From: Abyssogena phaseoliformis symbiont OG214
Lineage (GTDB): Bacteria > Pseudomonadota > Gammaproteobacteria > PS1 > Pseudothioglobaceae
Reading direction: 5' to 3'
DNA: 64,000 bases
Assembly (NCBI RefSeq): GCF_016592595.1
Contig: NZ_AP012977.1
Span: 930,001 to 994,000, forward strand
Shown piece by piece: positions 29,072 to 41,501 of this stretch; within the stretch, counting starts at the first letter, position 1; every line of letters begins with the position of its first letter. The notes under the pieces are model-generated. The model made no database searches, was not told the DNA's origin, and worked only from the letters and a program-made list of their open reading frames with translations. Both the position numbers and the translations under genes were made by a program.

Positions 29072-31630
29072 ATGAATATTGATAAACTAACCACCCAATT
29101 TCAACAAGACTTAGGCGCTGCACAATCTATCGCTATTGCGAAAAATAATAGCGCCATAGAAGCAGTACATGTTCTAAGTGCCATGCTACAAAACACCGAT
29201 AGTAGTGTTAGTAATTTGTTATCAAGCATTAACATTAACACTCATCAACTTAAACAAGAAACTGATAAAGAAATTAACGCCTTAGCCGTGATTAACACCC
29301 CAAGTGGTGATGTTAATATTTCTCAAAACCTGCTACGCTTATTAAATCAAGTAGATAAATTGACTTTGGACAAAGGAGATTCGTATCTATCAACCGAACT
29401 ATTTTTATTAGCTATCATCAAAGGCAATGATACAACCACAAAACTATTAAAAGCTGCTGGTGCCAATGAGAATGGTTTAAACCAAGCAATTAACAACCTT
29501 AGAGGGGGTGAAAACGTGAACGACCAGAATGCAGAAAATAACAGGGATGCACTGAATAAGTACACCCAAGATTTAACCCAATTAGCCATTGACGGCAAGC
29601 TTGACCCTGTGATTGGTCGTGATGGTGAAATTCGTCGTGCTATCCAAGTATTGCAACGCCGCACTAAAAACAACCCAGTGCTGATTGGTGAGCCTGGCGT
29701 GGGTAAAACTGCAATTGTTGAAGGCTTGGCACAACGCATTATTAATAACGAAGTGCCCGAAGGCATTAAAGGTAAGCGCGTTTTGTCATTAGACATGGCT
29801 GCACTGGTGGCAGGTGCTAAATATCGAGGTGAATTTGAAGAGCGATTAAAAGCCGTGCTCAAAGAGTTAGAAGCCGAGCAAGGTCAAGTCATTTTGTTTA
29901 TTGATGAATTGCACACCATGGTCGGTGCTGGAAAATCTGATGGCGCTATGGATACAGGCAACATGTTAAAGCCTGCCCTAGCCCGTGGTGATTTACACTG
30001 CATGGGCGCCACCACACTAGATGAATATCGCCAATATATTGAAAAAGACTCGGCTTTAGAACGCAGGTTCCAAAAAGTGCTGGTGGACGAGCCAACCGAA
30101 CAAGACACCATTGCTATTTTGCGTGGCCTTAAAGAAAAGTACGAGGTGCATCATGGCGTGGAAATCACCGACCCTGCCATTATCGCTGCTGTCACCTATT
30201 CAACCAGATACATTACTGACAGGCAACTGCCAGATAAAGCCATTGATTTAATTGACGAGGCTGCCTCACAAATTCGCATGGAGATTGATTCAAAACCAGA
30301 ATCAATGGACAAACTTGACCGTAAACTGGTACAACTTAAAATCGAACGTATGGCGCTTAAAAAAGAAAAAGACAAAGCCTCTAAAGCTCGACTAAAAGAA
30401 TTGGTTGATTTAATTAAATTACTAGAAAAAGAGTACGCTGATTTAGAAGAAATTTGGAAAAAAGAAAAATTGGTGGTTCAAGGTGCGCACCATCTTAAAG
30501 AAGAACTAGAGCAAGCAAAAATCGATTTAGAAAGCGCGCATCGTAATAACGATTTAGCCAAAATGAGCGAACTTCAATACGGCATCATCCCTGAGTTAGA
30601 GCAAAAAATAAGTGTGACTGAAAATGCTGATACGCAGCAAATGACCCTACTTAGAAATAAAGTGACTGAGGATGAAATCGCCCATATTGTCGCCCGTTGG
30701 ACAGGCATTCCTGTGGATAAAATGATGGCAGGCGAAAAAGACAAACTATTACAAATGGAGGATATTATTCACAAACGCTTAGTTGGTCAAAACAAAGCCG
30801 TTAAAGTAATTTCTGACGCCGTACGTCGTGCACGTAGCGGCTTGTCTGATCCTAATCGCCCTGATGGTTCGTTTTTATTTATGGGTCCAACTGGTGTAGG
30901 TAAAACCGAACTCGCCAAAGCCTTAGCAGACTTTTTGTTCGACACTGAACAAGCCATTGTCCGTGTTGATATGAGTGAGTTTATGGAAAAACACTCAGTT
31001 GCACGCTTGATTGGTGCACCACCAGGTTATGTTGGCTATGAGCAAGGCGGCATGTTAACTGAGGCTGTGCGTCGCAAACCTTATTCAATCATTCTACTGG
31101 ATGAAATTGAAAAAGCCCATCCAGATGTGTTTAACATCCTGTTGCAAGTACTGGATGATGGCCGCCTAACAGATGGTCAAGGTCGCACGGTTGATTTTAA
31201 AAACACTGTTATTATTATGACTTCAAACCTAGGTTCGCGCCTGATTCAACAAAACCCAGGTAAGGATATATCCGCTGAACTTTCTAAAATTGTCAGCGAA
31301 CACTTTAGACCTGAGTTTGTCAACCGTATTGATGAAATCGTGACCTTTAAAACACTAGAAAAATCCCAAATCAAAGATATTGCACTCAGGCAAATTGAAA
31401 TCTTATCAGCACGCCTGGCTAAACTTAATCTCAAACTAACATTAAGTGATACAGCCATCAGTATGATTGTTGATAGAGGCTATGACCCAGTATTTGGTGC
31501 CAGACCGCTCAAGCGCACCATACAGCAGTTGTTAGAAAATCCTTTGTCACAAAAAATCCTTGCTGGAGAGTTTTTATCAGGCTCAACCATTCATGGCAAT
31601 GTTAAAGATGGACAAATCATTTTCTCTTAA
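29072..31630 (+). CDS. clpB: protein-disaggregating chaperone ClpB
   Basis: A hexameric AAA+ unfoldase that works with DnaK to dissolve aggregates in the cytoplasm. The 852 residues comprise an N domain (1-145), the first ATPase (Walker A GEPGVGKT near 206; [11 protein letters not shown]), a middle coiled-coil region (about 400-530, rich in Lys and Glu) and the second ATPase (GPTGVGKT near 605; [13 protein letters not shown]). It is intact, with a heat-shock promoter in front and a strong terminator behind, so it is a single-gene unit. Confidence 0.97.
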
Positions 31631-31654
31631 TCAATTTTTATCTGATTAACACAC

Positions 31655-31680
31655 AGGAGGGCTATGCCCTCCTTTTTTAT
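31655..31680 (+). terminator. rho-independent terminator of clpB
   Basis: AGGAGGGC-TAT-GCCCTCCT forms a perfect 8-bp stem with a 3-base loop, followed by a run of T. It starts 25 bases after the clpB stop. Confidence 0.93.
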
Positions 31681-31687
31681 TACAATG

Positions 31688-31751
31688 CTAATTAAAAAAT
31701 ACGCCATACTTCAATTTAACCTGACCCCGCTCCTGCCAAACCAACAGCCAT
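31688..31751 (-). pseudogene. remnant of a micropeptide gene (cassette A)
   Basis: The ATG at 31749-31751, with GGAAG six bases upstream, begins MAVGLAGAG and then stops at once. Removing one G from a four-G run restores MAVGLAGAGQVKLKYGVFFN and a stop at 31688. This aligns with the intact micropeptide of cassette B, which begins MAAGLAGVGQIGL. The DNA around the start also matches cassette B (about 20 of 23 bases). It sits divergently from the XRE gene at 31880, just as the intact copy sits divergently from the second XRE gene. Confidence 0.6.
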
Positions 31752-31792
31752 ACTACACTTCCAACGCATCATAAATGCAAGTCATTATATCA

Positions 31793-31836
31793 GGAACTAT
31801 TATTCTATGGAATTATTATTCGTGGAACAATCATTC
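31793..31836 (+). repeat. three 13-bp iterated sites between the micropeptide remnant and XRE gene A
   Basis: GGAACTATTATTC (31793-31805), GGAATTATTATTC (31809-31821) and GGAACAATCATTC (31824-31836) are near-identical and spaced 16 and 15 bases apart. Each unit is partly palindromic (GAA...TTC). The spacing of about one and a half helix turns and the divergent location suggest operator sites, probably for the adjacent XRE protein. Confidence 0.7.
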
Positions 31837-31842
31837 CATTTC

Positions 31843-31864
31843 CTCAAAAATACAATCTTTTGAG
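31843..31864 (+). promoter_or_regulatory. dyad CTCAAAA-N8-TTTTGAG before XRE gene A
   Basis: A perfect 7-bp inverted repeat with an 8-base spacer ends 15 bases before the GTG start. A close counterpart stands at the same place before XRE gene B, so it is probably a conserved operator for autoregulation. Confidence 0.55.
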
Positions 31865-31879
31865 AAAAAGTAGAACTTT

Positions 31880-32092
31880 GTGGTAAATAAACAATCATTT
31901 TCCTATGTTTTAAAACAGCAACGCTCTAAAGTTGGATTGTCACAAGAAAAACTTGCTGAAAAAGCAAGTCTCTCAGTGCGTTATATTTCTTTATTGGAAT
32001 GTGACAGGCAACAACCTAGCTTAACTACTTTCATTAAAATTGCACGTGCGCTTGAAACTTCACCCAGTGAATTAATTGATCTGATTAAATAA
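31880..32092 (+). CDS. XRE-family transcriptional regulator, single HTH domain (cassette A)
   Basis: A 70-residue protein that is almost wholly an HTH_3 domain: FSYVLKQQRSKVGLSQEKLA, then SVRYISLLECDRQQPS as the recognition region, and a closing helix FIKIARALETSPSELIDLI. The GTG start is chosen because the domain begins at once after it. It has no effector domain, so it resembles small autoregulatory repressors, antitoxins or phage-type regulators. The second, frameshifted copy at 32433 is similar along its whole length. The divergent partner in this cassette is a broken micropeptide gene. Confidence 0.88.
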   Translation: MVNKQSFSYVLKQQRSKVGLSQEKLAEKASLSVRYISLLECDRQQPSLTTFIKIARALETSPSELIDLIK

Positions 32093-32125
32093 AAAGCCAC
32101 CTTAATAGTGTGGCATAAAATTTAT

Positions 32126-32296
32126 TTATAACTTTAATTTTACTAAAAGTAATCTACCTTCATTTAAAACAAAATATCGAAAATTATTTGAGCTAATTAT
32201 CTCTTTAAATTTTTCGCTTGTTATTTCTTCAGGTGCCTCAAGAAGTAAACTCTGACTTAACCCAATTTGACCTACTCCTGCTAAACCAGCAGCCAT
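32126..32296 (-). CDS. micropeptide of 56 residues, divergent from XRE gene B
   Basis: Starts MAAGLAGVGQIGLSQSLLLE and ends with a more polar half (EKFKEIISSNNFRYF) and LLLVKLKL. A strong ribosome-binding site, AGGAG at 32304-32308, stands 7 bases before this ATG; another ATG three bases earlier is worse spaced. The broken copy in cassette A aligns to the same start. The Gly/Ala-rich N-terminus and hydrophobic C-terminus could suit a membrane-active, regulator-binding or processed peptide. I recognise no family. The start-site quality and the duplicated arrangement are the evidence that it is a real gene. Confidence 0.55.
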   Translation of the reverse strand: MAAGLAGVGQIGLSQSLLLEAPEEITSEKFKEIISSNNFRYFVLNEGRLLLVKLKL

Positions 32297-32355
32297 CATA
32301 ACGCTCCTATTTTATTTAAAAAACCACTTTGATTGGAAAATTATAGCTTTATAAA

Positions 32356-32393
32356 AAAATATTACCATGAAGTGCACTTCATGGTAATATTTT
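32356..32393. promoter_or_regulatory. 38-bp perfect palindrome between micropeptide and XRE gene B
   Basis: The two halves are exact reverse complements with no loop, centred on the GC at 32374-32375. The core reads CATGAAGTGCACTTCATG. A tracts on the left and T tracts on the right extend it. It lies midway between the divergent micropeptide and regulator genes. It may be an operator for a dimeric regulator. It could also act as a bidirectional terminator hairpin, but it has no natural loop. Confidence 0.75.
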
Positions 32394-32402
32394 CAATAAC
32401 CC

Positions 32403-32423
32403 TTCAAAATTTAATGTTTTGAG
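32403..32423 (+). promoter_or_regulatory. dyad TTCAAAA-N7-TTTTGAG before XRE gene B
   Basis: The right arm is identical and the left arm differs by one base from the dyad before XRE gene A. It overlaps the ribosome-binding site (GAGG) of the GTG start at 32433, so a bound protein would block translation initiation as well. Confidence 0.5.
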
Positions 32424-32432
32424 GTAAATTAA

Positions 32433-32694
32433 GTGCCAATTAAAATGTCATTTGCTAAAGTGCTCAAACAAAAAACGCAGAACACTCAATCTATCCCAAG
32501 AAGTTCTAGCAGAAAAATTAGGGCCTTCTATGCGCTCAATTTCATTATTTGAGTGTGGTAAACAAGAACCTTTGCTTTCTAGTATTTGCTGTATTGCCAA
32601 GGCATTAGAAATAAGTGCTACAGAATTAATGTGCATCATAGAAAAAGACTTACAAAATCAAAGCCTTGTTGTCAATAAATCAACGTGTGATTAA
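32433..32694 (+). pseudogene. XRE-family regulator, cassette B, single-base frameshift
   Basis: From the GTG at 32433 (GAGG 8 bases upstream) the frame reads MSFAKVLKQ in line with copy A. It then shifts in a six-A run (32470-32475), where one A is extra. The correct continuation KRRTLNLSQEVLAEKLG, MRSISLFECGKQEPLLSS and AKALEISATELMCIIE is open to 32694. Corrected, it is an XRE protein of about 85 residues with a short C-terminal tail absent from copy A. Slippage at the A run could restore some product. Confidence 0.8.
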
Positions 32695-32711
32695 GTATAT
32701 AATTAAGTGTC

Positions 32712-33353
32712 ATGAGTGATTATACTAAAATTATAAAAAATGGTCTGTGGAATAACAACCAAGCCTTAGTTGCACTTTTGGGTCTGTGTCCTTTATTGGC
32801 AGTCACCAACAATATTGTGAATGCAATCGGACTTGGACTGGCAACCACGTTTGTTTTAGTGGCGTCTAATGTAACTGTTTCTATTTTTCGCCATCAAATT
32901 TCAAAAGAAGTTCGTATTCCTATTTTTGTCCTACTAATTGCTTCATTTGTAACAATTGTTGAGTTGCTGATGCAGTCATACTTTTATGATTTGTACTTGA
33001 TATTGGGTATTTTTGTACCACTGATTGTAACCAACTGCGCTATTTTAGGGCGTGCCGAAGCATTTGCTAGTAAAAATACCTGGGGGAAATCAGCACTGGA
33101 TGGGCTGATGATGGGCGTTGGTTTTTCTATTGTGCTTATTGTATTAGGCGCAATGCGTGAATTGATTGGCAGTGGCACTTTGTTTGACCAATCTGCGTTA
33201 TTACTAGGCAATTTAGGCAACACGCTTAGTGTTACTGTATTTGGAAACTATCAAGGCACTTTACTAGCAATCTTGCCGCCAGGGGCGTTTATTGGCTTGG
33301 GGCTTATTGTGGCAATAAAAAATAGATACGATTTAAGAGGGAGAAAATCATGA
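32712..33353 (+). CDS. rnfE: Rnf electron-transport complex subunit E
   Basis: A 213-residue inner-membrane subunit with six hydrophobic segments, part of the ion-pumping ferredoxin:NAD oxidoreductase. Blocks such as [19 protein letters not shown] at the start and [12 protein letters not shown] in the middle are diagnostic. The other rnf genes are not in this window, so the subunit is separated from its complex, or the complex genes lie elsewhere. Its stop overlaps the start of the rhodanese gene (ATGA). Confidence 0.93.
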
Positions 33354-40706: not shown

Positions 40707-41501
40707 ATGAAGTTTCTTAAACTTTTTATCCCTGTCATTATCGCTATACTACTTATACTCTCTGATTATAAGTTCTCATATCTTAATCATCTAAGACAAC
40801 CAATTGCAACCTTAATATCACCCATCTATATGATAGTAAACCTACCTTCACAGATTTATATTTGGATTGATGAGCAAGGTACCAGCAAAGGTCAATTAAT
40901 CAGAAATAATAATAATTTACATCGTGAATTATTAAAACTCAAGGCTAAATTACAAACCTACAACGCTTTAACGCTTGAGAATAAAAAACTCCAAGCGCTT
41001 TTAGGTTCAAGTTATGCCATCAAGCAACAAAACTTTACCTTGGCAAGAATAAGTGCACTCAGCCAATCTAGACTAAAAAAACAAATTATTATTAACAAAG
41101 GTAGTAATAGCGGTATCAAGGTTGGGCAGGTTGCCTTAAGCGCTAAAGGCATTATTGGGCAAATATCGCGAACAACACCACTATATTCAACCATATTAAT
41201 GGCTAGTGACCCTACGCAACATGTGCCTGTTAAAAATGAACGTAATGGTATTCGTGGCATCAGCAGGGGTGTTGCTGAGAATAATCATCTATTAGATGTT
41301 GAATTTATCGAATCAAATTTAGACGTTAAAGTAGGTGATGTATTTCTAAGTAGCGCCATTGGCTCAAAATTTCCAGATGGATATCCACTAGGAACAGTAA
41401 TTCGCGTAGAAGAACACCAAAATGAGCCTTTCTTGCACATCCAATTAAAACCTGCTCAAACACTAGAGCAACTAGAATTTGTCATTATTGCGACCGATTA
41501 A
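40707..41501 (+). CDS. mreC: rod-shape determining protein MreC
   Basis: A bitopic elongasome scaffold. One N-terminal membrane helix (LFIPVIIAILLILSDY) is followed by a coiled coil (about 65-105) and the periplasmic beta domain with INKGSNSGIKVGQVAL and PDGYPLGTV motifs. At 264 residues it is a compact family member. It follows mreB after 35 bases. Confidence 0.93.
   Translation: MKFLKLFIPVIIAILLILSDYKFSYLNHLRQPIATLISPIYMIVNLPSQIYIWIDEQGTSKGQLIRNNNNLHRELLKLKAKLQTYNALTLENKKLQALLGSSYAIKQQNFTLARISALSQSRLKKQIIINKGSNSGIKVGQVALSAKGIIGQISRTTPLYSTILMASDPTQHVPVKNERNGIRGISRGVAENNHLLDVEFIESNLDVKVGDVFLSSAIGSKFPDGYPLGTVIRVEEHQNEPFLHIQLKPAQTLEQLEFVIIATD

What the first reader, a model, noticed from the sequence alone, without database searches (positions are those of the whole stretch)
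32356..32393. 38-bp perfect palindrome without a loop
Exact symmetry over 38 bases, in the middle of the divergent region of cassette B, is far longer than needed for a terminator stem and has no loop. In a decaying A+T-rich genome, a perfect palindrome of this length should erode unless it is constrained or recent. It could be a dimer or tetramer operator, or a recombination or cruciform site.
Basis: seen in the sequence. Interest (0 to 1): 0.5.

Follow-up and report, generated by a model that had tools for sequence, protein, structure and literature searches.

The report
Palindrome perfected by replication copying error
A 38-base perfect DNA palindrome in a clam-symbiont-type bacterium is real, but relatives carry the same spot as an imperfect palindrome or one made perfect with a different sequence, so its symmetry most likely comes from a known copying error during DNA replication rather than from a special function.

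Summary
The palindrome is real: 19-bp arms, no spacer, the longest perfect inverted repeat in the window, single-copy in the genome. Two relatives suggest how it arose. G007 has an imperfect version: left arm of this genome's type, right arm of G002's type. Here the right arm is the exact reverse complement of the left; in G002 the left arm is that of the right. This is the footprint of quasipalindrome correction by replication template switching. With the best-rooted tree both are corrections; weaker trees make only one certain. The footprint recurs nearby: at clusters of differences among 7 genomes, local reverse-complement matches of 12 nt or more occur 18 times, against 0 and 0 in two controls. 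The operator reading is weak: cassette A lacks the palindrome, only 3 of 12 genus genomes yielded it, its core is no regulon, and a different inverted repeat precedes both XRE genes. Palindrome density does not follow the genus or recA loss. Known mechanism, tidy natural example.

The parts
32356..32393 (.). 38-bp perfect palindrome (19-bp arms, no spacer)
   Evidence: single copy in genome at <=3 mismatches
32375..32393 (.). right arm, the arm inferred to have been rewritten from the left arm in this genome
   Evidence: 3 edits from the G007-type and 4 from the G002-type right arm, which resemble each other
32356..32374 (.). left arm, inferred template (ATTACCATGAAGTG shared with G007)
32402..32423 (.). 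shorter inverted repeat CTTCAAAA-n7-TTTTGAG before xreB, better candidate for the XRE operator
   Evidence: same kind of repeat before xreA; pattern also found in G002 and G007 (before xreB), in G010 (before xreA) and, decayed, in G009; binding not tested
31842..31864 (.). matching inverted repeat CCTCAAAA-n8-TTTTGAG before xreA
32126..32299 (-). small ORF (57 aa) divergent from xreB; no Pfam match at E 0.1
32452..32694 (+). xreB, HTH_3 reading frame; probably frameshifted at its start (A6 here, A5 in G002 and G011)
31880..32092 (+). xreA, HTH_3 protein of cassette A, open frame of 70 aa

Best explanation
The site was an imperfect inverted repeat (quasipalindrome) in the common ancestor of several clam-symbiont species. 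During replication the growing strand paired with itself, or jumped to the other strand, and copied one arm from the other. This rewrote several bases at once and left exact symmetry. In this genome (G000) the right arm was copied from the left. In G002 the left arm was copied from the right. G007 still holds a mixed, imperfect state. Shown: the three sequences, which arm is shared by which pair, and the enrichment of the footprint nearby. Inferred: that each change was one event, its direction (root-dependent), that the mechanism was template switching, and that the palindrome itself has no necessary function.
For:: left arm ATTACCATGAAGTG in G000 and G007 but ACGCTATGAAGTG in G002; right arm CACTTCATAGCATATTTT in G007 and TACTTCATAGCGTATTTT in G002, but CACTTCATGGTAATATTTT in G000; a tree from 14 frames (5,027 residues) with 8 outgroup genomes splits G000, G002 and G011 from the rest with support 88, so that by parsimony both perfect forms are derived; 3 edits separate the G007-type from the G000 right arm, 4 the G000 from the G002 left arm; random 3-edit changes gave the exact complement 21 times in 3,000,000; folding energy -20.3 (G000) and -20.8 (G002) but -4.4 kcal/mol in G007; 17,790 pairwise clusters among 7 genomes, both sides tested; matches of 12 nt or more to a local reverse complement 18, to the reversed sequence 0, to the complement 0 (at 10 nt: 34, 6, 3)., judged by eye: one arm rewritten in G010 L128:17480, G003 L134:6640 and G010 L126:9027; a terminator with inverted spacer in G003 L134:16206; 26-bp arms in G005's xreA remnant, none of 8 or more listed for G009; the 25-bp-arm palindrome of G000 has 12-bp arms in G007; flanks show no block switch between G000-like and G002-like sequence.
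Against: Trees disagree on the root. Local trees put G000 outside the rest of the genus with support 42 and 60, and rpoB alone puts G000 with G007 and G010. Under those roots one of the two changes could equally be decay of a perfect ancestor, and only one correction is certain; with the and 49 root that certain one is G002's, not this genome's. G007's left end also differs slightly. Stepwise compensatory change under selection cannot be excluded by three sequences. Some of the other footprints are terminators, where selection on pairing could act. Exonucleases I and VII, which I recall as suppressors of such events in E. coli, are present in G000. Palindrome density in sampled genomes does not follow the genus or recA loss.
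Confidence: 0.82

Rival explanations
1. A dimer or tetramer operator for XRE A, XRE B or another regulator, kept symmetric by selection; the different arm sequences would be compensatory evolution with a co-evolving protein.
For: It lies in a divergent region next to an XRE gene. The inner 16 bp ATGAAGTG(C/T)ACTTCAT is kept in the three species in which the site was found.
Against: Cassette A has no such sequence, whereas CTCAAAA-n-TTTTGAG or a close form stands before both XRE genes. G007's site is asymmetric. No second copy within 3 mismatches in the own genome, and no regulon of the core. The site was not recovered from 9 of 12 genus genomes, and xreB itself looks frameshifted in G000.
Confidence: 0.1
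2. An intrinsic transcription terminator or bidirectional insulator hairpin.
For: A 17-bp RNA stem of about -20 kcal/mol, with a run of seven T at its end on the minus strand, four of them inside the arm.
Against: The terminator scan of 31600-32800 lists only 31655-31673, just after clpB. The site lies upstream of both neighbouring genes, where a terminator for either is pointless, and G007's hairpin is only -4.4 kcal/mol.
Confidence: 0.05
3. A mobile or dispersed repeat (REP/MITE-type) or recombination site.
For: Perfect dyad symmetry; intergenic.
Against: Single copy at up to 3 mismatches; the flanks are continuous and homologous in G002 and G007.
Confidence: 0.02
4. G007 is a recombinant of a G000-like left half and a G002-like right half, so the two perfect palindromes are the older forms.
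For: G007 combines one arm of each type, and recA is found in G000, G002 and G007.
Against: Flanking sites show no switch of affinity across the centre: left 4 G007=G000 against 4 G007=G002, right 14 against 10, with G007 itself the odd one out at 10 and 44 sites. It would still need to explain two different perfect palindromes at one site.
Confidence: 0.05

Closest known systems
Quasipalindrome-associated template-switch mutation in E. coli (PMC7202029, passages read; it cites Ripley 1982 and Dutra and Lovett 2006)
   Same: An imperfect inverted repeat becomes a perfect or more perfect one because the nascent strand is used as template.
   Different: That work follows events in laboratory reporters; here the events are inferred from species comparison in an uncultured symbiont lineage.
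Arm homogenisation and spacer inversion between inverted repeats in yeast (PMC8604942, passages read)
   Same: Multi-nucleotide changes that equalise arms or invert the spacer; both kinds are seen here.
   Different: Bacterial and largely outside genes; at the focal site the two directions seem to have occurred in different lineages, if the root is right.
Template switching that creates and maintains RNA hairpins (PMC8794818, abstract and opening text read)
   Same: Multi-base compensatory changes explained by one copying event.
   Different: No RNA gene is evident here; Rfam hits at the site are far below their gathering scores.

Membership tests
Quasipalindrome correction by template switching | A relative holds an imperfect inverted repeat at the same site | tested here: met
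   G007
Quasipalindrome correction by template switching | Changes concentrated in one arm and equal to the reverse complement of the other arm | tested here: met
   G000 right arm, G002 left arm
Quasipalindrome correction by template switching | Direction of change fixed by a rooted tree | tested here: inconclusive
   (support 88) makes both perfect forms derived; searches give other roots, under which only one is certain by parsimony
Quasipalindrome correction by template switching | All bases of an event changed at once | not testable with these tools
   one genome per species held
Quasipalindrome correction by template switching | Footprint enriched over controls elsewhere | tested here: met
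   18 against 0 and 0 at 12 nt or more; counts are pairwise and not independent
XRE operator | Site shared by the paralogous cassette and kept in relatives | tested here: not met
XRE operator | Bound by the XRE protein | not testable with these tools
   needs a binding assay
Intrinsic terminator | Stem with G-C pairs followed by a T run, downstream of a gene | tested here: not met
   one search does not list it; position
Dispersed repeat (REP/MITE) | Further copies in the genome | tested here: not met

The most novel reading that the evidence does not exclude
In these vertically inherited symbionts and their SUP05-type relatives, of which 39 of 40 sampled have no SbcD hairpin nuclease over the family cut-off, template switching may be a steady, genome-wide source of multi-base change that perfects chance hairpins, breaks genes and remodels promoters, so palindromes of this kind would mark an under-counted route of genome decay.
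Probability: 0.2. Interest if true: 0.6.

Novelty: new member of a known kind. Interest (0 to 1): 0.36.

Why it matters
It shows how a striking perfect palindrome can arise without being a binding site, and why symmetry plus covariation of arms between species is not proof of function. The three-species series (mixed, left-perfected, right-perfected) is a compact natural example of a mutation that the papers seen here study in laboratory reporters, yeast and RNA genes, and it can be screened for in other uncultured symbionts.

Tried and rejected
Rfam at permissive threshold gave, at the site, only microRNA models far below their gathering scores. The core-motif search for a regulon was negative. 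A first mutation-cluster test used a control that counted self-overlapping mirror words, and in it the reversed control outnumbered the reverse complement; I replaced it with non-overlapping arms. I tested whether long palindromes are commoner in this genus or where recA is lost: per 200 kb, arms of 12 or more were 9.5 in G000, 13 in G001 (no recA), 6 in G007, 4 in G012 and 13 in G014 (the last two outside the genus), so no such link. SbcD is over cut-off in 0 of 12 genus genomes (weak matches in 4), but also in only 1 of 40 family genomes (weak or better in 23), so it cannot explain anything special to the genus. The 50-bp palindrome of G000 had no homologue in the other 11 genus genomes, so its history could not be read.

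Paper searches for this pattern: 'quasipalindrome' with 'template switch' (12 papers), 'Calyptogena, symbiont, recA, repeat' (14, of which 12 listed), 'template switch, inverted repeat, endosymbiont' (7), 'quasipalindrom, bacteria, genomes, inverted repeat, evolution' (18), 'template switch, exonuclease VII, exonuclease I, Escherichia coli' (2), 'vesicomyid, symbiont, palindrom' (5), 'multinucleotide, template switch, bacteria, hairpin, inverted repeat' (4). By titles and abstract openings, none listed describes this site or such a survey in these symbionts. In a paper on repair-gene loss in vesicomyid symbionts (PMC5310779, passages only) the words 'inverted' and 'palindrom' do not occur in the main text.

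Full report
Observation. The 38-bp perfect palindrome at 32356-32393 is present as described. It is the longest perfect inverted repeat found in the window (spacer up to 12). Six Markov simulations of the window gave no inverted repeat with arms of 12 or more, while the window has 4. In its own genome it is single-copy at up to 3 mismatches.

Setting. The window is G000:C1:930001-994000. So this is a clam-symbiont genus of the SUP05 group; the exact species was not identified. The clpB-rnfE spacer holds xreA (31880-32092), a small leftward ORF (32126-32299), the palindrome, and an xreB frame (32452-32694). xreB has a run of six A where G002 and G011 have five, so it looks frameshifted here.

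Comparison. The spacer was read end to end in 11 of 12 genus genomes and from both sides in G008, where another gene intervenes. A homologue of the palindrome was found in G002 and G007 only. G000 and G007 share the left arm ATTACCATGAAGTG; G002 has ACGCTATGAAGTG. G002 and G007 have nearly the same right arm, (T/C)ACTTCATAGC(G/A)TATTTT; G000 has CACTTCATGGTAATATTTT. So G000 is symmetric on the left-arm sequence, G002 on the right-arm sequence (17-bp arms around a 2-nt centre), and G007 is the unsymmetric mixture. By majority at each position the node joining the three was imperfect.

Direction. If the root lies on the G007 side, both perfect forms are derived. If it lies on the G000 or the G002 branch, the change on that branch can equally be read as decay of a perfect ancestor, and only the other is a certain correction. 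A tree from 14 frames around rpoB (5,027 residues, 8 outgroup genomes) splits G000, G002 and G011 from the rest with support 88, which puts the root on the G007 side. Trees with less outgroup data disagree: clpB plus rnfE (support 42) and local columns (60) put G000 outside, and rpoB alone joins G000 to G007 and G010. I lean to two corrections; one is certain by parsimony.

Chance. Three random edits of the G007-type right arm gave the exact complement 21 times in 3,000,000. The flanks show no sign that G007 is a recombinant of the other two.

Wider test. In homologous stretches of 7 genomes (60-74 kb each) there are 24 inverted repeats with arms of 12 or more, some of them orthologous. In 42 Markov simulations the count per genome was 0-2, and none reached arms of 16. 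Aligning each with its relatives (judged by eye) shows one arm rewritten in G010 (L128:17480), G003 (L134:6640) and, inside an open frame of 85 residues, G010 (L126:9027), and a terminator with its spacer inverted in G003 (L134:16206). An objective test took clusters of 3 or more differences within 14 bases in alignments of 300 or more columns for all 21 genome pairs (17,790 clusters, both sides tested; pairs are not independent) and asked for a non-overlapping local match. At 12 nt or more: reverse complement 18, reversed 0, complement 0, direct repeat 19 (the last fits slippage). At 10 nt or more: 34, 6, 3 and 25. At 11 nt or more the distinct places were 16, 0 and 1 for the first three; two of the 16 are the two arms of G002's copy of this site, and at least one more pair looks like two arms of one site. 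Some places are terminators, where selection on pairing could also act. An earlier version of this test had a faulty control and went the other way.

More cases. G005 has a 26-bp-arm inverted repeat in its xreA remnant, while the same script listed none with arms of 8 or more in G009. In a 464-kb sample of G000 there are 23 inverted repeats with arms of 12 or more and 3 with 19 or more, against 1-2 and none of 16 or more in five simulations. One of them, with 25-bp arms, corresponds to a shorter hairpin in G007, G010 and G002, with 12-bp arms in G007. Another, a 50-bp palindrome, lies at the break between two frames, the first of which matches Baseplate_J, with a Tail_P2_I frame beyond; no homologue was found in the other 11 genus genomes.

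Function. No evidence for an operator was found. The repeat CTCAAAA-n-TTTTGAG, or a close form, stands before xreA and xreB and in relatives and is the better operator candidate. The terminator scan does not list the palindrome.

Machinery. xseA is found over cut-off in 11 of 12 genus genomes, G000 included, the exonuclease I C-terminal family in 12 of 12, recA over cut-off in 7 of 12, G000 included, and SbcD in 0 of 12 and 1 of 40 family genomes. That exonucleases I and VII curb such events in E. coli is recalled, not read here. Palindrome density does not follow recA loss or the genus.

Verdict. A real, non-random feature, best explained as a quasipalindrome made perfect by template switching: a known mutational mechanism, with an unusually complete three-species record.

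Noticed in passing
32448-32500: xreB has an A6 run where G002 and G011 have A5, shifting the start of the frame; probably a recent frameshift.
   Followed up: partly
L167:15682-15731 (G000): A 50-bp perfect palindrome sits at the break of a phage Baseplate_J-like frame in a stretch without homologue in the other 11 genus genomes.
   Followed up: partly
41371-41394: Within the mreC gene (Pfam MreC), G002, G011 and G003 have the perfect 24-bp palindrome TTCCTAATGGATATCCATTAGGAA; G000, G007 and G010 share an imperfect form.
   Followed up: partly
L028:1617-3086 (G008): The clpB-rnfE spacer of G008 holds a different gene, an open frame of at least 490 residues that includes HPFQDGNGR, the Fic motif as I recall it.
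   Followed up: partly
31720-31760: A degraded copy of the start of the small leftward ORF stands before xreA, so the two cassettes look like a duplication (22-nt match at 91%).
   Followed up: partly
G011, clpB-rnfE spacer: The first bases of xreA run directly into xreB, as if the stretch between the cassettes had been deleted.
   Followed up: no
L238:5690 and L237:17951 (G014): A genome outside the genus also has very long inverted repeats: a 44-bp perfect palindrome and one with 27-bp arms.
   Followed up: no
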